A stretch of DNA of 38,885 nt, from contig JAJCXZ010000020.1 of assembly GCA_029263175.1 (NCBI GenBank), positions 1-38,885 of the forward strand, given 5' to 3'. Made by a program: the position numbers and the translations under genes. This DNA comes from Acidimicrobiales bacterium. Its GTDB lineage: Bacteria; Actinomycetota; Acidimicrobiia; Acidimicrobiales; Aldehydirespiratoraceae. Shown in pieces: positions 24,315 to 38,290 of the stretch. The stretch's first letter is position 1; each line of letters begins with the position of its first letter. The notes under the pieces are model-generated. The model searched no databases, was not told the origin of the DNA, and was given only the letters and a program-made list of their open reading frames with translations.

Positions 24315-24390
24315 GCGGACGTAGCTCAGTTGGTAGAGCGCAACCTTGCCAAGGTTGAGGTCGCCGGTTCGAACCCGGTCGTCCGCTCCA
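24315..24390 (+). tRNA. tRNA-Gly, anticodon GCC
   Basis: The acceptor arms GCGGACG (24315-24321) and CGTCCGC (24380-24386) pair fully. The anticodon stem CAACC/GGTTG closes the loop TTGCCAA with anticodon GCC. The T-loop is TTCGAAC. The discriminator base is T at 24387 and CCA is encoded at 24388-24390. The gene is intact. It is followed by a terminator and then a tyrosine recombinase gene, so its 3' end is a likely integration site. Confidence 0.97.
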
Positions 24391-24500: not shown

Positions 24501-25628
24501 GTGAAGGGCTCAGTGCGCAAGCGCGATCGTGGAGTGTGGGAGGTGCGGGTGTACCTCGGGCGCGACGCTGATTCGGGTAAGAAGCGGTATCGATCGCGCA
24601 CCGTTCGCGGAGCTCAGCGCGACGCAGAGAGAGTCTGCAGAGAGATCGTTGCCGAGGTTGAGGCGGCAGGGCTGGAGGAGTCAGCCAATGGTTTCCCGTC
24701 GGTTTCGGCTTGGCTCGATGACTGGTGGGAGGCCAAACGAACGACCATTTCGCCGACAACTGCTTCCGCTTGGCAGTCATCCTTGGAGTTGTACTTGAAG
24801 CCAGCGATCGGCGACATGAGTCTGCACGAGGTTCGAGCTCACCATCTCGAGTCGCTTTACCGAGGGCTTGTCGAAGGCGGACTATCGGCAGCACGGGTTC
24901 AGAAGATCCACACGGTTGCTTCGGTCGCGTTCAAGGCGGCAGTTCGCCGTGAACTGATCGCAGCCTCCCCGGCTTCGACGGCACGTCCGCCCTCGGTGGG
25001 TCGCCAAGAGCCGACGGCACCCACACCAGAGGAGGTTGCACTGATACTCCGAGCGGCGCTGGACGATCCCGAGCTGTACGCGTTCTTGATCGTTGCGGCG
25101 AACACCGGAGCGCGACGCTCCGAGGTCTGCGCCCTGCGCTGGTGCGATGTCGATCTGGAGCAGCGTGTCATCACCATCTCGCGCTCGGTAGTGAAGGGCG
25201 CAGGCGGTGGAGCAGCCGTTCGACAGACCAAGACAGGGACAGCGGGCCAGACGGCGATTAGCGAACAGGTCACAGAGACACTGGAACAACTCCGGGTGTT
25301 TCGAACCGACGCTGCCTCCCTGCTAGGCGAACAGCTCCCGTCTACAGCCTTTGTCTGGTCGCAGGATGTGACGGGTGCCCGCCCGGTCTATCCAGACACG
25401 ATGAGCGCCCGGTTTGCGCGTGTGCGCGACGAGGTCGGCCTCGGCCATGTCCAGCTTCGACATTTTCGCCACTTCGCCGCCACCCAGCTGTTGTCGGCAG
25501 GAGTGGATGTGAGAACTGTCGCCGGGCGGCTTCGGCACGCGAGTCCTGCAATGACTCTCAATCGGTATGCGGCATGGGTACCGGCCCGTGACCGAGAAGC
25601 CGCTGATGTTCTCGACAACCTTGGCTGA
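24501..25628 (+). CDS. Phage-type tyrosine recombinase (integrase)
   Basis: This 375-residue integrase has an N-terminal AP2-like arm-binding domain (SVRKRDRGVWEVRVYLG), a core-binding domain (about residues 66-155) and a C-terminal catalytic domain. The first catalytic Arg is in NTGARRSEVCALRW. The second box reads QLRHFRHFAATQL, in which Arg320 stands where the HxxR His normally is, while Arg323 and His324 are in place. GRLRHASPAMTLNRY provides the final His region and nucleophile Tyr356. The gene starts at a GTG (24501) about 110 bases after the tRNA-Gly gene. That is the classic position for an integrase that uses the tRNA as attB. Whether the His change weakens the enzyme is unknown. Confidence 0.9.
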   Translation: MKGSVRKRDRGVWEVRVYLGRDADSGKKRYRSRTVRGAQRDAERVCREIVAEVEAAGLEESANGFPSVSAWLDDWWEAKRTTISPTTASAWQSSLELYLKPAIGDMSLHEVRAHHLESLYRGLVEGGLSAARVQKIHTVASVAFKAAVRRELIAASPASTARPPSVGRQEPTAPTPEEVALILRAALDDPELYAFLIVAANTGARRSEVCALRWCDVDLEQRVITISRSVVKGAGGGAAVRQTKTGTAGQTAISEQVTETLEQLRVFRTDAASLLGEQLPSTAFVWSQDVTGARPVYPDTMSARFARVRDEVGLGHVQLRHFRHFAATQLLSAGVDVRTVAGRLRHASPAMTLNRYAAWVPARDREAADVLDNLG

Positions 25629-25713: not shown

Positions 25714-25965
25714 TCATCGATTGTCTTGCGTCACGCTGTCTAGCATGCGATCGAGCGCACGTTTCGGGATGACGAGCCGCCGGCCAAGTCGGAGTACTGG
25801 GAGCTCACCGATGCGAGCGAGCTCGTAGGCCGTCGACCGGGAAATCCCCAGGATGTGGGCTGCCTCGGTGAGCGTGACTGTGGCCCTACGGTCGGAGATT
25901 TGTGGAACAGCCTCGTCGGGGGCTGGGTCTACGAACGGCCCAGCACTCGCTGCGCCGGAACTCAT
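25714..25965 (-). CDS. Excisionase-like helix-turn-helix protein
   Basis: This 83-residue protein has a MerR-like/HTH_17 DNA-binding domain, VTLTEAAHILGISRSTAYELARIGELPVLRLGRR, as found in small recombination directionality factors and antitoxin-type regulators. The C-terminal IPKRALDRML helix is typical of the Xis/HTH_17 group. It is convergent with the integrase, with 85 bases between the stops. The N-terminal 25 residues look unstructured, so a later start may also be used. A cluster of ACCTATCCG motifs lies about 200 bases upstream and may be its binding site. Xis function is inferred from context. Confidence 0.8.
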   Translation of the reverse strand: MSSGAASAGPFVDPAPDEAVPQISDRRATVTLTEAAHILGISRSTAYELARIGELPVLRLGRRLVIPKRALDRMLDSVTQDNR

Positions 25966-26342: not shown

Positions 26343-27321
26343 CTACGCCAGCAGTTTGCGAGCGGGGTTGGACATCGCCGCGTCAGCAACGCTGTCGTGT
26401 ATGGCGCTGTCGTAAGCCTGGGTTGCCGCTATGTCTGCATGACCGAGCAGTGCCTGCACGTCAGCCAGCCTGGCGCCACTCTCGATCAGCATCGCTGCGT
26501 ATGTGTGTCGAAGGCTGTGAGCGAGCGCTCCGGGTGGGGGCGTACGCCCGGACCGCTGGAACCATCTGCGAACGGCGTGATCGATCGCCGACCGACTCAT
26601 CGGTCGTCCGTCCGCTTGAACGAGCAGTGGTGCGGTCGGACCCACGGCGAGCCCTCTCTCCTTGCGGGTGGCAAGGAAGCGCTGTATTCGGTCTGCGGCC
26701 TCGGGTGGGATCGGAACAGTCCTCGCATTCCGTGGCGAGTTGACGACGCGGATCTGGGCTGGGTCCGTCAGTAGATTGCACTCGCCGACGCGCAGCTCCA
26801 CGGCCTCCGACTCTCGCAAACCCGCCCCGATCAGAAGAGCAAACAGCGCGCCGTCGCGTTCGGTCCACGGGTCTCGGCCTCTTGTGTCCGGTTCGGCGAT
26901 GACGAGTCCCAGCGCTTCTACGTCGGCGCGGGTTTAGGGGTTTCGGAACCCACGGCTCACGGGCCGGTATCTCGAGGTGATCGAATGGATTCCCGCGCAA
27001 GAACTCGTTGCGAACGAGCCAGAGGCAGAACTGACGCCACGTCGACATCACCCTCCGCGTCGAGTTCACTGAACGCCCAGTCGCGTAGCGTTCGACTGCC
27101 GGGGCCAGTCGCTCCGGAGTGAGATCCGCTGGCGTGAGCGACTCAAGACTTGACAGCTTGCGCGGCTGCTTGCCGCGTCCAGCTAGTGCTTCGCCGATAG
27201 CGGCGAGGTCAGATCTCCGAGCTGAGACCGTGTTCTGTGACAGACGAAGCGAGTCTGCGTCCGCTAGCCAACGGCTGGCAAAGTCGCCAAGGCTAGGCGC
27301 TGCATAATCAGTGTTAATCAC
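26343..27321 (-). pseudogene. XerC/D-like tyrosine recombinase split by a one-base frameshift
   Basis: Two adjoining frames together encode about 325 residues of a XerC/D-type recombinase. The N-terminal core-binding part starts at the GTG 27321 (LGDFASRWLADADSLRLSQNT) and runs to VPKPL. The catalytic part continues in another frame with TRADVEALGLVIAEPD and includes LLIGAGLRESEAVEL, HSLRHTYAAMLI and LLGHADIAATQAYD, so HxxR and the Tyr region are intact. The break is at 26933-26936: removing one A from CCCCTAAACCCGCG on the coding strand restores PLTRADVEAL. It could be a true inactivating mutation, a sequencing error, or a recoded +1 shift. A second recombinase in the island suggests an older or nested element. 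Confidence 0.82.
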
Positions 27322-27385: not shown

Positions 27386-30300
27386 GTGCCGTCGCTGGTT
27401 GGAGCGCATAGGGGTTACCACCACCAAGACATCGTCACCGCTCTCGCGCTCGCCAATCTCTTGGTCGCCCGTGCCGCCCCCCGCGCTGTTCGAGTCGACA
27501 TCAAGCGCTTCGATGACGATGTCTTTGACGACCTAGCCCTCGAGGGTCTCCGATCGACTCGGGTCCAGATCAAGTCCCACACGACTGATGAGCGAGAACT
27601 CACTCTGGCGGACTTGGCGACGACAGCGATCAACTTTCCGCTCGATCGCGCCGTTCAGAGCATTCTCGCCGACCCTGAACCCAGCGACGAGTATCGCCTT
27701 CTGGTCACCTATGACCGGCCCGCCGACGATCTCCAAGAATTCCTCGAACCGGCCGATGATGTTGATGCGATCCTGCCGGGAATACCGACGTCACGGTTCA
27801 GGCTCAGTCTGGATCGGGTCTGGCCGCTCGGTGGTGAAGGGTGGCAACGGATTCGGGGCTTGGATCGCTCGGATGTCAGTCGGTTCCTGCAACGGTTCGT
27901 CGTCGAGACGGGCTGTCCGCTGTCGTCGCGTGATCTACGGAACCCAGGGCCGCTTGATGAGGCCCTGATGACATTGCTGGTGGATCGGGTTGGCGTAGCG
28001 CGACCACCGAATGAGCACATCGAGCCCGCAAGCGCAGCTGCTCACCTGATTGGTCTTGCCCAGCGACTCCGGTCGGAAGAGTTCGACGGACTTGCGACCG
28101 ATGTGACAGCAGCCATCGGGCTGAAGACTGACTACGCGCGCGTCGAGGAGGTGCTCCCACTCGATCCCTCGCATCTCGTGAGTCGATCGACCGAGATTGC
28201 GGCGATCACAGCTCAGGTCGAGGCCGGGGGGCGGCTGGTTATTTCCGGTCCTCCAGGAGCCGGCAAGTCGTGGTTGCTTCACCTTGTTCGGGACGCGCTG
28301 GTCTCCGACGGGTGGATTGTCGCACTCCATTTCTGCTTCATCGACTTGCTGGATCAAGCTCGCGCGCTGCGGACGACAGTCACGACGATCTTCGGGAGCT
28401 TGATCGCGGAGCTGTTGGATGCCGCCCCCGACCTTGCAAGCGACGATGCCCCTAGGTACGCGGCCGGCCCGACGGAGCTCGAGGCTCTGCTTCGCGCCGC
28501 TGTCGACGAAAGCCCCGATCTGCGAATCGCAGTGATTGTCGATGGGCTCGACCACGTCGATAGGGAGTCGTCGAGCTCGGGAGCGGAAATCGCAGAGGAG
28601 CTGGCCTCCCTCGATCTCCCTGACCGGGTAGCACTGATCGTCGGCTCTCAGCCTGGAGATCACCTCGGCCCGCTCACTGGCGCCCTCCCGCAGCACGAAG
28701 TGGCGGAGTGGGATCACGTCGAACTGGGTGCGCTCGTCGACCAGCTCGGCGTCCTACACGCGGTCGAAGCCCTGGAGATTGATCGTCGTCCAGTCATCGA
28801 GGTCATCGCTGACCGGTCCCGTGGAAACCCTCTGTACGCGACCTATCTGAGTCGAGCGGTCGCGGAAGCTCTGGCAACACCGACGGCCCGCTCGTTCGGC
28901 GCAACCGACGTGGTTGAGTTTGTCGAGGAGGCCCCATCCTTCGCTGGCGATCTTGATGACTACTACAGCTGGCTCCTCAAGACGCTGGAAAGCGACGAGG
29001 GCGCACTCCATGTCGCCCGCCTCATGGCCACGCTGGACTTTGCGGTCACAGTGGATGACCTGATCGCGATCTACCCGGCCAGTGGTCCATTGATCGCCCG
29101 GGTCATCGCCAGGCTCGGGCCCGTGCTCTGTAACGAACCGGCTCTGGGAGGTCTACGCATCTACCACGAGAGCTTCCAGCGCTACCTCCGTCAGAACGCA
29201 CTCGATGCTGGAACTGACATCGCCGCCGTGGTCGCCCCTGCCATCGGCTGGCTCGATACTCAGGGTCTCGCTCACGACAAGCGTGCCTTCAGATCGCTGT
29301 TGGTTCTCATGGAGGCGGCCGGACGCCACGCGGAGGTCCTCGAGCGAGTCGACACCGAGTTTGTTGCCAATGCCGTAGCCGAGGGCCAGCCCGGAGATGC
29401 AGTAATGCTGAACCTGCGACTGGCCGCCTCGTCGGCGGTACAGCTCGGCTCGTGGCCCGGTCTTGCGAGGCTGATTGAGATTGCCCGTTCAGCCGATCAC
29501 CTGTACCACTGGCGCCTGAACGACGAATCGCTCGCCGAGGAATACGGCCGGGCGTTCGCCGCAATGCGCGGTGCGCCCGTTCTCGCAGATCGGCTCCTTC
29601 ACGATGGTCGGTGCACCTTCCTCCCCCGACCCGGCCTAGTGCTCTGCGAGCTCTGCGAGGAAATGGGCATTCCCGCACCCTGGAGCCAGTACCTCACTGC
29701 CCACGATCAACTCCTCGAAACCGACAACACCCAGTACGGCAGCGGCGACCAAGCCATCTACCGAGCCCGCGTCCTCGGCGAACTCCGCACAGCGGGACAC
29801 GACGGCGCGATCAACCGCGCCCGAGGATGGCTCGCAGAGCCGACACAAGCGCCAGTGCACAGCCTGGACGTCGCACGACGACTCGCCGACCTCTACGGAG
29901 ATGAAGCTCTCGATCAACTGGTTGCGCAGCTTCACGACACGTCGGCGCGCTCATGGGCACTCCTCGCTCGAGCTGAGCGACAAGACGACGACGCCGATGC
30001 GGCCTCCACGGCGACAGACGCGCTAGAAGCCGGTCTCCCCGCGACGGGCTTTCGGCTTGCGATGAAGCACGGAGCGACGATTCCCGAGGCGGTCCTCGCG
30101 CAAGCCCCCGATCTCCTCGAACTCACTGGTGCGGTAACGGCAACCGGCTTCCACATCAGCGACGGACAGTTCGAGACGTGGCTCGCCGCGGTAGAACTCG
30201 CCGCAGCCCAAGATGACGATGCCATCCTGGCAACGGCTGAACTGGTCGTCCCAGCGAACTCGTGGTTCCACCGGTGGCTCAGGTTCGCGCTGCTCATCCA

Positions 30301-33300
30301 CCGCCGCGACATGGAAGCCCCAGCAGTACTGGCCGCTCTCGACGAACTCAGCCACGACATCCGGATCCTCGAAGGCGGCCCCCGCGTCGTCGATCTTCTG
30401 CGAATCCACGACGACATCCAAGCCTCGTTCCGTTTGGCACTGGAGCGTCTCGACGACGACGACCTGTGGGACGCCGCAGCGGAGTCCCTGGCACGACTCA
30501 GTCGGGACTCAACCGCATGGCTAGGCGGCTCGCGCACGGGTCCGCTGCCGGTCGATGACCTCCTTGAAACGCTGATGGCAACAGCCACAACGGAGCGCCG
30601 TGCCCGTACAACGGTCGAGTACGCCAAAGCGGAGCTGTCTCCGGCAACCCGACCCGGCGAGTACTACGACACACACGCCGCCGACCAAATGCTACTCGCA
30701 CGACTCCTTGCCGGCGCTGGGGATCGTCACGGCGCCGAGCTCGCGTGGGCTGAAGCGGCGCAGTATCTGGCCAGCTACGGCTTCCGCAAAGACATCACCG
30801 TCTTCGAGACAATCGACAACCTTGACGCGCTCGCCCAGGCGTGCCCCGATGAGATCGCGACCGCGCTCGAGCAGCTGCATCCGATCGTCGAAAGAGTGCT
30901 CGTTCACACCGATGGCAAGGAGACACGGTGGGCGATCCACAAGTGGGTGGACGCTGCGGGACTGCACGATCCGGTCAGCACCCTTGCCTTCCTCGGCCGG
31001 CGGGGCCTTGAGCACGCTCCTTCGTTCGGAGATCTCGATCATGGAATGGCGAGCGCGCTCGCGGCTCTTTCGCCCGTAGTCGACGAGGACGCCGCGATCG
31101 CTGGCTGGATCGGCATCGGGTCCGAAGCGCGGGAGGAGTTCGAGCCGGCCATTCTCGCGGCGGAGCCCGAGCCCACACCTGCCTGGGACATCATCATCGG
31201 TTCCCTGGTCGGTGACGGCCCAAGTGCACCGAGCGGCTCGGGCGACCTGATCGCGCGATCAGCAACGCAACTCGGCAAGCCGCCCATCACCACGAGTGAG
31301 CCCGAGCCCGAACCGGCGCCGACGGCGAGAACGCGAAGCGAAGAAGATGCCCACCGGCCAGAGTTCGCCATTCCCCCGGACGCATTCCCCGGCGAGGTGG
31401 CGCGAGCTGTTCGCCGTTGGCGGGACTCCACCCCAGGCGCGTCGACTGAGCGCGTCGTTGGCGAAGTCGCAGCGCACTTACTGCGGCTCCTCGGCGACGA
31501 TCGGGTTCCAGAGGCTGAAGCTCTTCTCGGCCGGCTCGCCCGCGATACTCCACCGTGGGACCGTCGTGGGCTTCTGGACGGTCTCGCTGACACGCTGCTG
31601 GTCGCAGGACCGCCTCGCCTCGCCGCGATCGCCGCTACCTATTCACTCACCCGGACAACCGATGGCTGGCGCCGGTTCGGTGGCGAGCACCAAGAGCACT
31701 TCCGACGGGCTCTCGAATCCGATCACGATGCAGCGATGGCGACGCTCATGGCCGAAGTCGCCGACGCTGTGCGCACCGGCGGTGACATGGGTGTCAACCG
31801 GCGCCTAGTCGAACTCCTCGCCCTGGCAGATCATCCAGACCAGGCCTGGCAGACATGGTCCGAAGTCCGCCGGGTCATCGAGAGCCGCCTGCCGACCGTC
31901 GGGGACGCCGACACGATCGAAACCACCTACGTGGCTACGTCACTCTCTCCCGATGCAGCCCTGTGCTGTGCTCTTCTCGCGAGACTCAACCACGTCAAGG
32001 TTCATGAGCGTCGGGTCGCAATCGTTGCGCTCGGTCGCCTCATCCGCCGGCCCGGCGATGCGTGCGCGGCCGCCATCTCCATAGCAGCGACGCATGCGCC
32101 AGCGTCAGTCCTCACAACCCTGCTTGCGCTTGTCGAGGAGCACGAGCTGGCACCGTACGCCACTACCCACAGCGCACTCGACGCACTCAGGACCATCGCC
32201 TCGGGACCGCTCGTGGTGGCGCGCGACCTCGCCCGAAGCCTCCTCGAGCGCGTGGATGTCGATCGTCCGACAGCGCCATCAACGACGATCGCAGCGACCA
32301 CTTCGGTCACCGAGGAGAGACTTCGCCACCTGGTCGACTCTGTAGGGATTGCCAGGCTCGATCCTGTGCAAGCCGAGTGGGACGACTTCAGAACGATCGT
32401 TAGTGAACGCCTCGATATTGCACTGCGATCAGAGGAACTCAAGAGCCGAGGCGAGATGTTCCACCGCAGGATGGTGGGCGGTCGTGTCGGGCGCCGCGCC
32501 GACCTGTGGGCGCCGATCAATGAAGAGGTCGAGGAGATCCTTCAAACCGTAGGAGCCTCCGCACGAGCCAACAGGGCGGTCACAGGCAGCATCGATCCAT
32601 CCGTCGAAGAGCGAGTCGCGCGAGCGCTTCTCCCCGACACGGCTCTCGGCGAGCGGCTGGCCGCAAGTCGCACGCCGCGGCCCACGCATCTCTCTCCGCT
32701 GTCGGAGCAGAAACCAACTACCGGAGATCCAACGCAGGCCGTTTCGGAACCAGCGTTCGTGCCCAACGGCGAGTACCGAGACTGGTTCATCATCGGCCAC
32801 CACGAGGCCGAGCTGATCGTGGGGGAGGACATGTTCGAACCCGTGAGCGGTACCGCAGAGACATGGTCGTCGCTCCTGTTCACAGACGAGCCACCCGACC
32901 TGCGAGGAGACCTCCCCGTCTCCCGCGGACTCCCGGCTCTATGGACGACCGAAAGCAACATCGCGCCTGACAGGTTCGGCGGGCCGCTGGCTGGGTTCCA
33001 GATCGTGCGGGACGCGTTCGGCGTCGTGAGCCTGCTCACTCCCCACCAGATCCTCGTCTCGGCCGCCAGACTTCGGCCAGCACCGTCGGGGTTCGGACTG
33101 GCCATGGTTGACGCCGCTGGATCAGTCGCTGTGAGACTCCGCATTTGGCGCGAGCGGACGATGGGGGGCGACTACCTCGACGACTGGGAACACCGCACTA
33201 TGGGCATGGAGCTCATCGCCCGACCAGACGTTGTCGAGCAGGCTGCCGGTTTCGCATCCACACAGAAGCTGGTCATGGTGTCCGCCTTGATGACTATTCC

Positions 33301-33313
33301 ACGGTCCACATGA
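27386..33313 (+). CDS. Large STAND-type NTPase with N-terminal Cap4-like nuclease domain (AVAST-like)
   Basis: This 1975-residue protein has three regions. Residues 1-230 resemble the Cap4-type dsDNA endonuclease: G10-Y11-x-x-Q14, an acidic FDDDVFDD stretch (43-49) and Q61-I-K63, the QxK half of a PD-(D/E)xK site. Residues 265-560 form a STAND NTPase with Walker A G288-PPGAGKS295 and Walker B LRIAVIVDGLD (Asp386, Asp389), followed by a region typical of NACHT/STAND helical domains. From about 570 to the end it is helix-rich, with an acidic-proline linker near 1310-1330, probably repeats that sense a target. Avs proteins combine such an effector, a STAND core and a repeat sensor to detect phage proteins. 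The start is a GTG at 27386. Defence function is inferred; no sensor ligand can be named. Confidence 0.75.
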   Translation: MPSLVGAHRGYHHQDIVTALALANLLVARAAPRAVRVDIKRFDDDVFDDLALEGLRSTRVQIKSHTTDERELTLADLATTAINFPLDRAVQSILADPEPSDEYRLLVTYDRPADDLQEFLEPADDVDAILPGIPTSRFRLSLDRVWPLGGEGWQRIRGLDRSDVSRFLQRFVVETGCPLSSRDLRNPGPLDEALMTLLVDRVGVARPPNEHIEPASAAAHLIGLAQRLRSEEFDGLATDVTAAIGLKTDYARVEEVLPLDPSHLVSRSTEIAAITAQVEAGGRLVISGPPGAGKSWLLHLVRDALVSDGWIVALHFCFIDLLDQARALRTTVTTIFGSLIAELLDAAPDLASDDAPRYAAGPTELEALLRAAVDESPDLRIAVIVDGLDHVDRESSSSGAEIAEELASLDLPDRVALIVGSQPGDHLGPLTGALPQHEVAEWDHVELGALVDQLGVLHAVEALEIDRRPVIEVIADRSRGNPLYATYLSRAVAEALATPTARSFGATDVVEFVEEAPSFAGDLDDYYSWLLKTLESDEGALHVARLMATLDFAVTVDDLIAIYPASGPLIARVIARLGPVLCNEPALGGLRIYHESFQRYLRQNALDAGTDIAAVVAPAIGWLDTQGLAHDKRAFRSLLVLMEAAGRHAEVLERVDTEFVANAVAEGQPGDAVMLNLRLAASSAVQLGSWPGLARLIEIARSADHLYHWRLNDESLAEEYGRAFAAMRGAPVLADRLLHDGRCTFLPRPGLVLCELCEEMGIPAPWSQYLTAHDQLLETDNTQYGSGDQAIYRARVLGELRTAGHDGAINRARGWLAEPTQAPVHSLDVARRLADLYGDEALDQLVAQLHDTSARSWALLARAERQDDDADAASTATDALEAGLPATGFRLAMKHGATIPEAVLAQAPDLLELTGAVTATGFHISDGQFETWLAAVELAAAQDDDAILATAELVVPANSWFHRWLRFALLIHRRDMEAPAVLAALDELSHDIRILEGGPRVVDLLRIHDDIQASFRLALERLDDDDLWDAAAESLARLSRDSTAWLGGSRTGPLPVDDLLETLMATATTERRARTTVEYAKAELSPATRPGEYYDTHAADQMLLARLLAGAGDRHGAELAWAEAAQYLASYGFRKDITVFETIDNLDALAQACPDEIATALEQLHPIVERVLVHTDGKETRWAIHKWVDAAGLHDPVSTLAFLGRRGLEHAPSFGDLDHGMASALAALSPVVDEDAAIAGWIGIGSEAREEFEPAILAAEPEPTPAWDIIIGSLVGDGPSAPSGSGDLIARSATQLGKPPITTSEPEPEPAPTARTRSEEDAHRPEFAIPPDAFPGEVARAVRRWRDSTPGASTERVVGEVAAHLLRLLGDDRVPEAEALLGRLARDTPPWDRRGLLDGLADTLLVAGPPRLAAIAATYSLTRTTDGWRRFGGEHQEHFRRALESDHDAAMATLMAEVADAVRTGGDMGVNRRLVELLALADHPDQAWQTWSEVRRVIESRLPTVGDADTIETTYVATSLSPDAALCCALLARLNHVKVHERRVAIVALGRLIRRPGDACAAAISIAATHAPASVLTTLLALVEEHELAPYATTHSALDALRTIASGPLVVARDLARSLLERVDVDRPTAPSTTIAATTSVTEERLRHLVDSVGIARLDPVQAEWDDFRTIVSERLDIALRSEELKSRGEMFHRRMVGGRVGRRADLWAPINEEVEEILQTVGASARANRAVTGSIDPSVEERVARALLPDTALGERLAASRTPRPTHLSPLSEQKPTTGDPTQAVSEPAFVPNGEYRDWFIIGHHEAELIVGEDMFEPVSGTAETWSSLLFTDEPPDLRGDLPVSRGLPALWTTESNIAPDRFGGPLAGFQIVRDAFGVVSLLTPHQILVSAARLRPAPSGFGLAMVDAAGSVAVRLRIWRERTMGGDYLDDWEHRTMGMELIARPDVVEQAAGFASTQKLVMVSALMTIPRST

Positions 33314-33485: not shown

Positions 33486-33510
33486 GTGCTGGCGCTTCTA
33501 GCACCAGCAC
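33486..33510. terminator. Inverted repeat between the convergent STAND and metalloprotease genes
   Basis: GTGCTGG (33486-33492) pairs with CCAGCAC (33504-33510) across an 11-base loop that includes the protease TAG stop. It is the only hairpin seen between the two convergent genes and may serve as a weak bidirectional terminator. No T-tract is present. Confidence 0.35.
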
Positions 33511-34505
33511 AGGGCTGGTGGGGCGACCTCGATGTAGAAGGGATCGGAGTCGTCTCTGAACGTGAGCCCGATCCCCTTCCAAAACTCGAGAATTGCGGTT
33601 CCAGCAGCCTCGACTAAGGCACGTTCTTGGTCAGCGAACTCATCAACGGCTGGGACAATGGGCTCGGAATGGAAGAGCTCGTGGAGCGTCTTCCAGCAGG
33701 AGTGCATCGGGCCGAAGTCGCTCTCACTGGTGATGGGATCCGCTGCGTTTCTCGGGCCGTCGTGGGCGGCTTGTCCGTGGGCTAAGGCGATCAGGATCTC
33801 TCCGGTCGTTGTTTGAACGTCGAGCCACATCTCAGAGAGCTCTTTCCCGGATACTCGATACTCGTGGATCCTCCCTACGATTCGCCGGAGCGCGGTCGCC
33901 GCCAGTTCACCGAACTCGTTGGCACCGAAGTGAGCGTCCCGCACTGTCATGGGCCTCGAGCCTCCGTCCTCCTCGGTGACCGACGCCGTCGCTCCGAGAA
34001 TGACGTCGGCGATCGAGTCCGCCCGGTACTCCTCGAATGCGTAGCGCGCTAGCCACTTGCAGGTCTCCCAAGGGACCTCGGCGGGTGGTGTCCGCACCCC
34101 TGCTTCGTGTCTCATCTGACCAATGAGCGTGTGGGCAAGTTCGTGGGCGACCAAGAAGGTCGTATGGGCGTGATTGATTGGTGTCGACACATCGATCGAG
34201 CCACGGGACATCACAAGGACCGGTTGTCGATGTTCTTCGTCGCGGTACATCGTCTTGCCCACGACGACTCCCCCGACGCGATCGGTGTGGAAGTTCTCCT
34301 TTGACTCGTCACCGATGACCGCCGAGTCGAACTCTCTCACGGCGCCAGCGAGGTCGTCAGAGACCACGATTTCCAGAGACGTCAACGGCGCTACGCCCTG
34401 ATCGGAGCGCACCCCATCAAAGGCCATGGCGAGGGTCTCAAGAGTCGCGACCAAAGCCTCCGGTAGTTGCTCAGAGCCGTCGGGGTGGAGCTGAATTCGT
34501 AGCAT
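33498..34505 (-). CDS. HExxH zinc metalloprotease-like protein of unknown family
   Basis: I do not recognise a named family. The protein of about 335 residues has a zinc protease motif H121-E122-L-A-H125 in LVAHELAHTLIG. A third-ligand candidate follows about 33 residues later in FEEYRADSIAD (Glu158/Glu159), the layout of gluzincins such as the ImmA/IrrE group. The rest is helical and ends in an unusual CWC tail. I chose the ATG at 34505 because AGGA lies at a suitable distance upstream; a GTG at 34553 would add 16 residues. No signal peptide is present, so it should act in the cytoplasm. It follows the 1202-aa nuclease gene on the same strand with a gap of about 176 bases, so the pair may be one transcription unit. 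It could process or activate its partner, or cleave a repressor. Confidence 0.65.
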   Translation of the reverse strand: MLRIQLHPDGSEQLPEALVATLETLAMAFDGVRSDQGVAPLTSLEIVVSDDLAGAVREFDSAVIGDESKENFHTDRVGGVVVGKTMYRDEEHRQPVLVMSRGSIDVSTPINHAHTTFLVAHELAHTLIGQMRHEAGVRTPPAEVPWETCKWLARYAFEEYRADSIADVILGATASVTEEDGGSRPMTVRDAHFGANEFGELAATALRRIVGRIHEYRVSGKELSEMWLDVQTTTGEILIALAHGQAAHDGPRNAADPITSESDFGPMHSCWKTLHELFHSEPIVPAVDEFADQERALVEAAGTAILEFWKGIGLTFRDDSDPFYIEVAPPALCWC

Positions 34506-34636
34506 TCGGAGTCCTGTCAGTTCGATCCCAACGCTACCTACGAGGTCTGACACGACCCGGTCGGACGGGGAACCAGATGCTGTTTGTCAACAGGTTGCGA
34601 GCGGCCGTTGGCTTGCCGTCGTTCGCGGGACTCGCT

Positions 34637-34657
34637 CGTGGGAGACCCTCGCCCACG
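34637..34657 (-). terminator. Hairpin between the nuclease-like and metalloprotease genes
   Basis: CGTGGG (34637-34642) pairs with CCCACG (34652-34657). It lies just after the nuclease-like stop codon. It may attenuate read-through into the protease gene. Short stem and no T-run. Confidence 0.3.
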
Positions 34658-34681
34658 GCAGGCGCCAGCTCTGTGAGCCCA

Positions 34682-37600
34682 CTACGTACGCATGTGGATC
34701 CCAGGGCCAGCGAGGCGGTCGTCGTCAACGACGGCTGCTAGGTCATCGACTATGCAGAAGGCGACTCTTGGGTCGATAGCGAACGCTGCGGGTTCGAGGT
34801 GTCGGGTGACCATCAGGCCATGGACCTCCCACTGTCGGGCAGGTTCGGTCGCACCGAGGGCTGTAGCGATCGAAGCAGCGCTTGCGTCGACATCCCCGAC
34901 CTTCCGCAACAGCTTGTCGACATACCCGCCTGACCCGAGGAAGTCATTGGTGAGGCCGCGGATCTGGCGGGCGGAGTAGGGGGTATAGGGATCCTTGGCC
35001 TCGATGACCCAAACCCGCGATCGTTGAACGTCGAGGCAGAGCGCATCGATCTCCCCGGCGAGGTCCGTGATTCCGAAGTGATCTGCCTTCTCCGGTTTGA
35101 TCCCTCCCTGGACGATGAGGTTCGGGGCTTCAAGGGCTTCGACGCAGTCCTTCTCGAGCTGGCGGTTCTGGCGTTGCCGATGCTGGTCGAGTGCCTGTGC
35201 CACTTCGCGGGGTAATGCCGTGGCTGGCCAGGGAAGGCGACCGTCGCCGAGGTAGTTGGCGAAGATCTTCAGTGTGCTCTCTGAAGTCCATGGAAGTACC
35301 CAGATTCGGTCGTTCGCGAGCACGAATGGGCTGGTGGCGATTCGCTTTGCGCGTCGCTCGGTCTCCCAGTGTGGGATCACATCGGCCGCCAGGTCTTCTC
35401 CACGCAGGGTGAGCCAGTCGAGGGCTGCAGCAAACTCGTCAGCTGTTGCACCGACGGCTAGATCCATGCACTCCTGGACGAACTCATCGTGCGTGGTGGC
35501 TGTCGCTGGAGCGTCGCTCGTGGCGGCGAACTGAGTAGCCACATTGAGCGCTCCGGTGATGGCGTCGATGCCGAAACTGAGGCTGCCCTTCATCGCTGCG
35601 TCAATAGCGAAGAGATCTGGCATCAACTCCACGACTGCCCTTGGCTCTTCATCCGCGGGGTCCGGCTCCGGCTCCGAGCCAGTCGAGATCGGCACGCCGC
35701 GCGGAAGCATGTGTGTGGACCTCGCGTCGCTGTATGCCCGTGCGTCGGTATCGGTCGGCTCGGTGGATGCGACGACGGTGACCTCGTACAGGCTCGAGAT
35801 CTCGACGCTCGTCCGAGTCAACTGGAAGTGGATCGCGTCGCTGCGGAGGCACGAGTCAATGCAGAGGTGGGCGATCGAGAGCGCCTCGATCCATGAGAGC
35901 TCGTCCGTCGTCGCGTCGCCCGCCGGTGGGTGGGCGAGGACTTCCTCGACAATGAATGAGATCGCGCGTGTTGCCTGGGAGACGCGCTCCCGGCGCTCGC
36001 CATCGTCTTCTCCCTTCCTCACCGGGAAGCCCCGTTCCCACGAAAGCTGCCTGTCGATCATGTGGCGCTGGTGGTTGGCGCGTTCGAGCTGTTCGAGCGC
36101 GAAGGCAAGCAGATCGTCGGCTCGCAGCGGTGCCACGGACTGATGGAAGAGGCGTATCAGCCAAGGGAACACCGTCTGGCTTTCGAACCGAGTGGCGTCG
36201 GCACCATGTAGTTGCGAGGGCTGGATCTGCTCCTCAGCGAGGTGCTCGCCGAGCTTGCGAAGAGCAGCACTCTGGACGGCTTCGTGGACGTCGACCGGCT
36301 CCGGTAGCTGCTGGGCTTGCTGGCGCACCGAGTAGCCATCTGCACGGAGTCCGGGTGGTGCCGACTCCCAGGCCGTCAAGAACGACGCTTGCGCCGAGTC
36401 GGTCAGCACGCTGGCCACGCACTGCCCGCAGAGCGCCTCCACCTCCAGAGAGTTCTCGGCGACAGACGCGAGGAGTCGGTCATCCCACCCGATCGTCAAG
36501 ATCGTCTCGTCGACGTTCGCTGTTGAGAGCGCGGGCCCGGCAACTCGTTCCTGATACTCGAATTCGATCCGCAGTGATCGCAGTCCGGATTCGCTCGCCG
36601 CCACGACGAAGGCGTCGGCGCTGTGTTCGAGCTTCCAGGCCAGACCGACAGCGAGATTCCATAGCGTCGAGAAGTGCTCCGAGGGAGCGTTCGCGTCGAC
36701 TTTGGCGACGGCTACGGGAACGTCCCAAGAGAAGACCTGGTAGACGTGATCCGTGCGCAGGTCTCCAACCTCGGTGCCGTTCCGGTGATCGAGCGCGACG
36801 ATCGGCCAGCTCCGTAACGGGGGCAGGCTGAGCTGATGCAGAGCCCGTTCCACAGGTGAACTTGCCGCCGCTTCTTGCCATTCGGCAACCGCTGCATGCG
36901 GCGAGAACATCATCGAGGTGATCGGAAGGCCCCCTCGATAGAAACTCTTCTGCGGCTTCCATACCTCCCACCGATCGATGAGATCCCACGCGAACATCCG
37001 GTCAATGCCCCCGGCGTATTCGAGATCGCGAACGAAGTACCACAGGTCCTCGCTCGAGCGCTGTGACGAGTAGAGGATCCACTCCAGGTCCTCCACGCTC
37101 ATCATCGGCCCGTGTGCACCAAGCGGCGAGGCATGCATCGGCCCGGCGACGATCTGAACTCGGACGATCTTGGCATCCGGCGCGATTCGCCACGAGGTCG
37201 CCGGGTTCCTGACCTCGACTCCAGGCTGGATCGAAGCCAGTCCCGCTGCTCCCTGATCAAGCCGGCCCTGAATGGCCGCCGGCGTCAGGCCCGCCACGAC
37301 GTCGAGTGCGAGGACGAGCCTCTCGTCGAACGTCGCGAGGGAGTGGATCGGGACTCCGTCGCCAACCCGAACGGGACCAGCGATCCGGTGTCCAGAGCCT
37401 TGCAACAACCGACCGACGTGATTGGCGATCGCGGCCGAGAACGCCGCGCCCGGCTGCTCGCTTCGGTCGGCCGCATACTCCGCGAGATACGCACCGATCG
37501 CTGGCAGCGCCTCGACCAGTATCCCTGCGGGGAGCCACACTGACTGCGACCCCGACCGGACGCCGATTGCGGGGCCGAATGTCGCTGTGGGGTGAGAAGG

Positions 37601-38290
37601 ATCGAACGACAGCTTGTTTGCCGGTCGCACGAACCTCTCGGCGACGGCCTGTGCGCGGGCCGGGTTGGCGCACGCGTCGACCACGTCCGGTAGGCCGGGC
37701 AGCGAGCAGGCAGCGGCGACCTCGGCGGCCGAGACACTCGGGCGCGAGCCGACCTCTGCTGCGGGCGCCTCGCCCCAATGTGGAGCAAGACCCGCGGCAA
37801 CGGCGTCCAGTCTCCGAAGAGTCAGCTCGGCCACATCCCCAATTCCGAATCCAAGCTCGCTGGCCAGGAAGGGGTCGATAGCGAACGCCAGGCGTGCGTG
37901 CTGGTTGACCACCGCTGTCGGGCGTTCCAACGACCCCGGAATCAATCTGAAGAGATCGCGCTCCCAGCGAACCAGTACCTCAGAGCGAGCATCGTACGGC
38001 GCAAAGTCCTCCATCATGGTTAGGGCGTGAGCGTGTTCCTCCGCTGCAGCATCAACGAGCGCCGGCAAGTCTTCCGCCGCTGCCGGTCGTCCTTGCGTGT
38101 GCCGACGCCGAACTGCAGTCCTGAAGAGGGACGAAATTGATGGGCCGCGGTGAGCGGCTCCGGGAGAAACGGACGCCGCCTCAAGCACCGGAAGGACCGT
38201 GTCCGTCGAGAGCTCGTCTAGAACGCGGGAGACGGGACTGCTCGCCTCTCGTTCCCGACGTTCTCGCTTCTCTCGGCTCTTCCTTCCCAT
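34682..38290 (-). CDS. 1202-residue protein of unknown family with C-terminal PD-(D/E)xK nuclease-like domain
   Basis: Most of this protein matches nothing I recognise. The N-terminus is very basic (MGRKSREKRERRERE). The long middle part is mixed alpha/beta without a visible NTPase P-loop. An acidic, low-complexity linker (SEPEPDPADEEPR) lies near residue 910. The end carries a nuclease signature: G-E1080-I-D1082-ALCLD followed by VWVIE1097-A-K1099-D, the core of restriction-like PD-(D/E)xK enzymes. The ATG at 38290 has GGAG five bases upstream, so the start is firm. It precedes the metalloprotease gene on the same strand and converges on the STAND gene. A role in defence against foreign DNA is inferred from the domain, size and island setting. 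Confidence 0.6.
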   Translation of the reverse strand: MGRKSREKRERREREASSPVSRVLDELSTDTVLPVLEAASVSPGAAHRGPSISSLFRTAVRRRHTQGRPAAAEDLPALVDAAAEEHAHALTMMEDFAPYDARSEVLVRWERDLFRLIPGSLERPTAVVNQHARLAFAIDPFLASELGFGIGDVAELTLRRLDAVAAGLAPHWGEAPAAEVGSRPSVSAAEVAAACSLPGLPDVVDACANPARAQAVAERFVRPANKLSFDPSHPTATFGPAIGVRSGSQSVWLPAGILVEALPAIGAYLAEYAADRSEQPGAAFSAAIANHVGRLLQGSGHRIAGPVRVGDGVPIHSLATFDERLVLALDVVAGLTPAAIQGRLDQGAAGLASIQPGVEVRNPATSWRIAPDAKIVRVQIVAGPMHASPLGAHGPMMSVEDLEWILYSSQRSSEDLWYFVRDLEYAGGIDRMFAWDLIDRWEVWKPQKSFYRGGLPITSMMFSPHAAVAEWQEAAASSPVERALHQLSLPPLRSWPIVALDHRNGTEVGDLRTDHVYQVFSWDVPVAVAKVDANAPSEHFSTLWNLAVGLAWKLEHSADAFVVAASESGLRSLRIEFEYQERVAGPALSTANVDETILTIGWDDRLLASVAENSLEVEALCGQCVASVLTDSAQASFLTAWESAPPGLRADGYSVRQQAQQLPEPVDVHEAVQSAALRKLGEHLAEEQIQPSQLHGADATRFESQTVFPWLIRLFHQSVAPLRADDLLAFALEQLERANHQRHMIDRQLSWERGFPVRKGEDDGERRERVSQATRAISFIVEEVLAHPPAGDATTDELSWIEALSIAHLCIDSCLRSDAIHFQLTRTSVEISSLYEVTVVASTEPTDTDARAYSDARSTHMLPRGVPISTGSEPEPDPADEEPRAVVELMPDLFAIDAAMKGSLSFGIDAITGALNVATQFAATSDAPATATTHDEFVQECMDLAVGATADEFAAALDWLTLRGEDLAADVIPHWETERRAKRIATSPFVLANDRIWVLPWTSESTLKIFANYLGDGRLPWPATALPREVAQALDQHRQRQNRQLEKDCVEALEAPNLIVQGGIKPEKADHFGITDLAGEIDALCLDVQRSRVWVIEAKDPYTPYSARQIRGLTNDFLGSGGYVDKLLRKVGDVDASAASIATALGATEPARQWEVHGLMVTRHLEPAAFAIDPRVAFCIVDDLAAVVDDDRLAGPGIHMRT

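What the first reader, a model, noticed from the sequence alone, without database searches (positions are those of the whole stretch)
33498..38290. Possible new two-gene system: HExxH metalloprotease paired with a 1202-aa PD-(D/E)xK protein
A large protein with no recognised family except a C-terminal restriction-like nuclease core lies directly upstream of a cytoplasmic zinc protease on the same strand, inside an island. Protease plus nuclease pairs occur in several defence systems where one partner activates the other. I know of no described system with this combination of lengths and domains.
Basis: partly seen in the sequence, partly recalled or inferred. Interest (0 to 1): 0.8.

Follow-up and report, generated by a model that had tools for sequence, protein, structure and literature searches.

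The report
Divergent Upx-like nuclease beside an orphan protease
The large gene is a distant relative of a known single-gene phage-defence protein called Upx, carried on mobile DNA; the neighbouring protease gene is rare and was found beside it only here, so this does not look like a new two-gene system.

Summary
Both genes are real: an HExxH protein (33498-34553, minus) and a 1202-aa protein (34682-38290, minus) with a C-terminal PD-(D/E)xK core, in an element at tRNA-Gly. The proposed pairing fails. A profile of the protease family (three members found) hit nothing in 31 loci of the large protein's relatives, and neither other protease locus holds the large protein. The large protein does have known kin. 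Its alignment-based model (pLDDT 79) matches solved Upx (9wuf) over nearly its whole length (Foldseek E 4e-25; Z 24.3, 1035 residues). Sequence profiles agree (E 6.6e-9; hhalign 98.9%, 1.9e-17 over 480 columns). Upx is a listed anti-phage defence protein. PADLOC's Upx model misses this clade: 0 of 7 members scanned at E<=5. D1082 and K1099 are present in 25 of the 25 rows that reach them. Of the 31 loci, 22 are in Streptomyces and 10 in plasmid records; defence genes are often near. Best reading: a self-contained Upx-like mobile defence nuclease with an unrelated protease next door. Phage defence by this clade is untested.

The parts
34682..38290 (-). Upx-like protein, 1202 aa (P0002); C-terminal PD-(D/E)xK nuclease core
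   Evidence: AF2 model matches 9wuf (Upx) over nearly full length; profile homology; catalytic residues conserved
34763..35203 (-). PD-(D/E)xK domain, about residues 1030-1176; D1082, E1097, K1099
   Evidence: VIA-align rows for Cdn1, Can2 and EndoMS at Z 8.1-9.4; D1082 and K1099 in 25 of 25 covering rows, E1097 is E in 24 and D in 1
33498..34553 (-). HExxH predicted metalloprotease, 351 aa (or 335 aa from ATG at 34505); family of three found
   Evidence: H137, E138, H141, E175 the same in 3 of 3; no Pfam, NCBIfam or PADLOC match; not found near Upx-like genes elsewhere
24315..24390 (+). tRNA-Gly(gcc), probable integration site
   Evidence: 46-nt exact copy of its 3' part at G000:C5:29092-29137
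24501..25628 (+). phage-type (tyrosine) integrase of the element
   Evidence: PF00589 E 8.5e-22
25714..25965 (-). HTH_17/AlpA-like DNA-binding protein, excisionase candidate
   Evidence: PF12728 E 7.6e-14

Best explanation
The 1202-aa protein is a divergent relative of Upx: a self-contained, single-gene defence protein carried on mobile DNA. Its long N-terminal part would sense infection or foreign DNA and hold the C-terminal PD-(D/E)xK nuclease in check until triggered; the nuclease then cuts DNA using D1082, E1097 and K1099. Shown here: the ORF, the fold match and sequence homology to Upx, conserved catalytic residues, carriage on plasmids and integrase-bearing DNA, defence genes nearby, no constant partner. 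Inferred: DNA as substrate, the trigger, autoinhibition, phage protection. The HExxH protein next door is an unrelated orphan cargo gene, at most a local accessory.
For: AF2 model of residues 5-1202 from 16 sequences, mean pLDDT 79.4, pTM 0.71. Foldseek against PDB: one match below 0.001, 9wuf 'Cryo-EM structure of Upx', E 4e-25, TM 0.59/0.58; VIA-align Z 24.3 over 1035 residues, next row 10.3. Independent of structure: the family profile hits 9wuf_A at 6.6e-9 in two colinear stretches, one of them the nuclease; an HMM of three proteobacterial Upx finds P0002 at 1e-8 (Z set to 1000), and hhalign gives 98.9%, 1.9e-17 over 480 columns. PADLOC's Upx model hits a G408 member of the clade at 1.8e-5. 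The scan with the clade's alignment returned two proteins that match PADLOC's Upx strongly (L039, L040). D1082 and K1099 in 25 of 25 covering rows, four Upx rows among them. Mobile carriage: 11 Streptomyces plasmid records; an integrase 3 kb from the G173 gene. Defence setting: at least 10 of 92 neighbour proteins match PADLOC at E<=1e-25 against 1 of 92 control proteins (Fisher p 0.005). No constant partner in the loci listed.
Against: PADLOC's Upx model recognises neither P0002 (none at E<=5) nor 6 relatives, nor anything in the window's genome. Identity to 9wuf is only 12-14% in the structure alignments, so function may have drifted. Single-sequence phmmer searches of P0002 find no Upx chain. 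Part of the defence enrichment rests on one SNF2-helicase family at 4 Streptomyces loci that may be plasmid housekeeping: without it 6 of 92 against 1 of 92, p 0.06; by loci 5 of 24 against 1 of 20, p 0.14. Controls were chromosomal windows, while 7 of the 24 test loci are plasmid records. No description of the mechanism of Upx turned up in the passages and listings seen.
Confidence: 0.75

Rival explanations
1. Two-gene system: the HExxH protease cleaves and so activates (or degrades) the Upx-like nuclease when infection is sensed.
For: Same strand, protease directly downstream with a 128-nt gap in which a simple pattern scan saw no promoter or terminator. Proteolytic gating of a nuclease is an established defence principle (PMC12799240: abstract with opening text, and section 4, read).
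Against: No protease-family member in 31 loci of the relatives, and no relative of the large protein in 2 of 2 other protease loci. No other called protein with HExxH in four loci of Upx proper (L081, L089, L090, L091). The genes do not overlap. The pairs in that paper use other protease and nuclease folds.
Confidence: 0.07
2. The Upx-like protein serves the mobile element rather than the host: exclusion of competing plasmids or phages, or a maintenance function.
For: 10 of the 31 loci examined are plasmid records, some near ParA (L012, L013, L017) or primase genes (L009, L012, L015).
Against: Rare among plasmids (11 of 72,556 records); also in the integrase-bearing DNA of the window and G173; defence genes nearby. 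It overlaps with defence, since exclusion is a form of it.
Confidence: 0.15
3. The large protein works with the neighbouring STAND-type gene (27386-33313) as a joint system.
For: Two relatives, L021 and L032, have a PDC-M54A protein directly downstream on the same strand, the L032 one with a weak LmuA match at its N-terminus and weak NTPase matches; the window has a 1975-aa AAA_16 protein with a partial Avs1b match 1.4 kb away.
Against: The window gene is convergent, separated by the protease gene, and did not match PDC-M54A. Of 24 non-redundant loci only two have PDC-M54A within 6 kb at E<=1e-25. Ordinary clustering of defence genes explains it.
Confidence: 0.03

Closest known systems
Upx (PADLOC PDLC02221; PDB 9wuf)
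   Same: Length (1202 against 1272 aa), fold over nearly the whole length, C-terminal PD-(D/E)xK with the same D, E and K
   Different: 12-14% identity in the structure alignments; opposite sides of a 100/100 branch; P0002 not detected by PADLOC's Upx model; named members all Actinomycetota except one unnamed bacterium (L020), 22 of 31 loci in Streptomyces
Nuclease-protease pairs of Hachiman/AVAST/Lamassu/DRT and caspase-nuclease loci (PMC12799240)
   Same: A nuclease gene next to a protease gene in defence-type DNA
   Different: [quoted passage not shown] here PD-(D/E)xK and a free-standing HExxH protein, adjacent in one genome only
M78/IrrE-ImmA and M48 metallopeptidases
   Same: HExxH motif plus a downstream Glu (E175, in EEYRAD); likeness of the second part to these families is recalled
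   Different: No Pfam match for P0001 (E<=5) or its homologue in L014 (E<=0.1); three members found; fold not established (single-sequence model pLDDT 38.8)

Membership tests
Upx | Fold of solved Upx (9wuf) | tested here: met
   Foldseek E 4e-25, TM 0.59/0.58; VIA-align Z 24.3, rmsd 7.0, 1035 residues
Upx | Sequence homology to Upx by profile | tested here: met
   9wuf_A 6.6e-9; hhalign 98.9%, 1.9e-17 over 480 columns; Upx HMM to P0002 1e-8 at Z 1000
Upx | Recognition by the PADLOC Upx model | tested here: not met
   No match at E<=5 for P0002 or 6 relatives; none in G000, one clade member in G408 at 1.8e-5. Hence filed as an Upx-like sister clade, not as Upx
Upx | C-terminal PD-(D/E)xK residues shared with Upx | tested here: met
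   D1082 and K1099 in 25 of 25 covering rows of 27, E1097 E in 24 and D in 1
Upx | Acts as a single gene, no constant partner | tested here: inconclusive
   No neighbour is constant in the loci listed; independence not tested experimentally
Upx | Protects against phage | not testable with these tools
   Needs plaque assays
Nuclease-protease pairs (PMC12799240) | Trypsin-like protease fused to a defence enzyme, MBL-fold nuclease upstream | tested here: not met
   P0001 is a free-standing HExxH protein without Pfam hit; the P0002 nuclease core is PD-(D/E)xK
Nuclease-protease pairs (PMC12799240) | Recurrent co-occurrence of the two genes | tested here: not met
   0 of 31 P0002-type loci and 0 of 2 other P0001-type loci
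M78 (IrrE-like) peptidase | HExxH with a downstream acidic ligand | tested here: met
   H137, E138, H141, E175 the same in 3 of 3; the motif is shared by many zincins, and E175 as ligand is inferred
M78 (IrrE-like) peptidase | Match to the Pfam M78 model | tested here: not met
   No Pfam family for P0001 at E<=5

The most novel reading that the evidence does not exclude
In this lineage an HExxH metalloprotease has been recruited next to an Upx-like nuclease and gates it by cleavage, a first metalloprotease-activated PD-(D/E)xK defence pair, so recent that no second copy is in the collections searched.
Probability: 0.06. Interest if true: 0.75.

Novelty: new member of a known kind. Interest (0 to 1): 0.35.

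Why it matters
It extends Upx to a separate clade (31 loci examined here, 22 in Streptomyces) whose scanned members PADLOC does not flag, and gives a catalytic-residue test (D1082, K1099) and diverse homologues with which to study how Upx works. It also shows that adjacency in one genome did not make a system.

Tried and rejected
Pairing of the two genes: rejected. HExxH-bearing ORFs next to relatives in L024 and L027: 63% alike, but they look like antisense shadows of the SNF2-helicase gene that they overlap (my judgement). An M48 peptidase three genes downstream in L010 is annotated as only 101 aa in the closely related L011; an RmrA-type M78 protein in L022 lies two genes upstream on the other strand. 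Neither matches the P0001 profile. Housekeeping family: none in Pfam or NCBIfam. Viral contigs and phages: no relatives of either protein found. P0001 family in 395 other genomes of the phylum and in 249 genomes of another family: none (the latter without a positive control). P0001 could not be searched in the species-level genome collection, whose one scan went to P0002. P0001 in PDB: only insignificant rows. P0001 model: pLDDT 38.8, not used. Weak VIA-align rows for model residues 274-445 (BspD6I and HindIII, Z 8-10) and 510-642 (M1 aminopeptidases, Z 6-7) were not used as evidence; the tool warns that such Z can be a common arrangement. No acidic or lysine column between residues 278 and 449 is invariant in A2, and P0002 has no HExxH. 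Empty-site test for the island: apart from the tRNA repeat itself, the C5 flank is not shared by the relatives' loci compared, so not shown; one search was uninformative (large dehydrogenase family). Protein comparison failed; hhalign was run in the Python box instead.

Papers: 'PDC-M54' none; 'anti-phage'+'HExxH'+'nuclease' two, listing only, neither on this subject; 'Upx'+'phage' seven, listing; 'Gao_Upx' one, listing only; a fifth search listed PMC12799240. Passages of PMC12629846, PMC10855318, PMC12948488 (Upx absent) and PMC12691588 (another Upx, capsule loci) were read; of PMC12799240 the abstract with opening text and section 4. That Upx comes from Gao et al. 2020 is recalled; PMC10855318 lists it under nucleic acid degradation.

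Rows dropped: the partial matches in G007, G289 and G445 and the plasmid record H4 (same query range and scores as H3, not fetched) are not among the 31 loci. The 31 include near-copies (L010/L011, L009/L013, L030/L031/L033/L036), hence 24 non-redundant. L020 and the G408 split ORFs were left out of the tree; L011, L013, L025, L037 and other near-copies or partial rows were never put in. Neighbour scan: 92 test proteins were all that passed the filters; the 92 controls were drawn at random from 201 that passed them, so the per-locus comparison is uneven.

Full report
Observation. The window is one whole contig, C20 of 111, of a genome that is probably actinobacterial (the named relatives found are Actinomycetota). 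Two minus-strand genes are as described: P0002, 34682-38290, 1202 aa, and P0001, 33498-34553, 351 aa from GTG. Neither protein matches any Pfam, NCBIfam or PADLOC model at E<=5 except two insignificant Pfam rows for P0002. They lie after a tRNA-Gly and a phage-type integrase. The last 46 nt of the tRNA recur exactly on contig C5, a candidate for the other end, but continuity of the contigs is not shown and the C5 flank is not shared by the relatives' loci compared.

The pair. Relatives of P0002: 11 Streptomyces plasmid records; 4 of 395 other genomes of the phylum, two of them with substantial matches; and 21 loci in the species-level genome collection, 19 of this clade and two that proved to be Upx proper. 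I examined 31 loci: 10 of the 11 plasmids, those 19, and G173 and G408 with stretches of about 20 kb. With near-copies removed 24 remain. Three of the 31 (L020, L026, L038) have under 1.2 kb downstream. Relatives of P0001: one plasmid found with P0001 itself and a second found with that homologue; none in 395 phylum genomes. A profile of the three P0001-type proteins, run over 3952 ORFs of 61 loci, found only these three (the window's one in overlapping copies), and blastp in the same call found no P0002 relative in the other two protease loci. Adjacency is therefore not conserved in what was searched. P0001 itself looks like a zinc peptidase (H137, E138, H141, E175 the same in 3 of 3), but its fold could not be modelled.

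What the large protein is. An AlphaFold2 model of residues 5-1202 on 16 sequences from the window and the genome collection reached pLDDT 79.4. Against the PDB a single entry stands out, 9wuf, Upx. Sequence supports this without the model: the family profile finds 9wuf_A at 6.6e-9 with the nuclease among two colinear stretches; a profile of three proteobacterial Upx finds P0002 at 1e-8, and profile-profile alignment covers 480 columns at 98.9% probability. L040 and L039, brought in by the scan with the clade's alignment, match PADLOC's Upx model at 1.2e-118 and 1.5e-68; L040 matches 9wuf_A at 1.5e-82. The Upx model fails on P0002 and six relatives. In 376 phylum genomes it rings in 2: G347 (1.1e-19, open frame of 1250 aa) and, at 1.8e-5, the G408 member of the present clade; not in G000. 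Single-sequence searches of P0002 against the PDB find no Upx. A tree of 24 rows puts P0002 with the G173 protein (97/96) in a group of 20, opposite four Upx rows (100/100 on both); several branches are long and the programme warns about their joins. D1082 and K1099 are present in 25 of 25 rows that reach them, of 27; E1097 in 24, with D in one.

Setting. Ten of the 31 loci are plasmid records; the others are contigs of unknown kind. The G173 relative has an integrase 3 kb away and, on its other side, a small ORF that I read as an HTH protein. Neighbour proteins within 6 kb at 24 non-redundant loci (92 proteins of 220 aa or more passing a codon filter) were scanned against PADLOC, with 92 control proteins drawn at random from 201 in 20 chromosomal windows. 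At E<=1e-25 at least 10 of 92 match: four SNF2 helicases (L008 named; L012, L024 and L027 by their clustering with it), two PDC-M54A (L021, L032), type I MTase and REase (L037), RmrA (L022) and PDC-S28 (L025), against 1 of 92 controls. Fisher p 0.005; without the helicases 0.06; by loci 9 of 24 against 1 of 20, p 0.011, or 5 of 24, p 0.14. The defence setting is suggestive, not overwhelming, and plasmid controls were not run.

Mechanism. Most likely an autonomous sensor-effector: the long N-terminal part recognises a phage or foreign-DNA cue and releases a metal-dependent PD-(D/E)xK nuclease. Only the homology, the conserved active site and the setting are shown. Substrate, trigger and outcome are inference, and no description of the mechanism of Upx turned up in the listings and passages seen.

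Verdict. The two-gene hypothesis is not supported. The large gene belongs to a divergent Upx-like clade, and the protease is a rare neighbour of unknown role.

Noticed in passing
window 27386-33313 (+): 1975-aa AAA_16/STAND-type protein (Pfam AAA_16 2.9e-9) with a partial Avs1b match (PADLOC 2.6e-10) and GYHHQD near its N-terminus; probably a separate defence gene of the island.
   Followed up: partly
L021:9308-14253, L032:13875-18614: PDC-M54A candidate defence protein directly downstream of two Upx-like genes; split into two ORFs in L021. A possible recurrent neighbour.
   Followed up: partly
L008, L012, L024, L027: One SNF2-helicase family (ZorD/DpdE-like by PADLOC) recurs near the Upx-like gene in four Streptomyces loci.
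   Followed up: partly
window 26343-26819 (-): C-terminal part of a second phage integrase (PF00589 3.2e-21), seemingly degraded upstream; the island may be composite.
   Followed up: no
G011:C69 (606-651, 3340-3385, 7198-7243): Three more copies (two exact, one 96%) of the tRNA-Gly 3' part within 8 kb of the tRNA in a family-level relative: an integration hotspot.
   Followed up: no
P0002 residues about 514-646 and 278-449 (window 36353-36751 and 36944-37459): Weak fold resemblance of the middle part to M1 aminopeptidases (Z 6-7) and of an earlier part to restriction endonucleases (Z up to 10), without conserved motifs.
   Followed up: partly
L060:7196-11004: In G408 the Upx-like protein is split into a 1008-aa ORF and an overlapping 304-aa ORF with the nuclease; natural split or frameshift not decided.
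   Followed up: no
L089:8297-12028: A 1243-aa protein that matches PADLOC's Upx model (1.1e-19) in a genome of the window's own order, so both clades occur there.
   Followed up: partly
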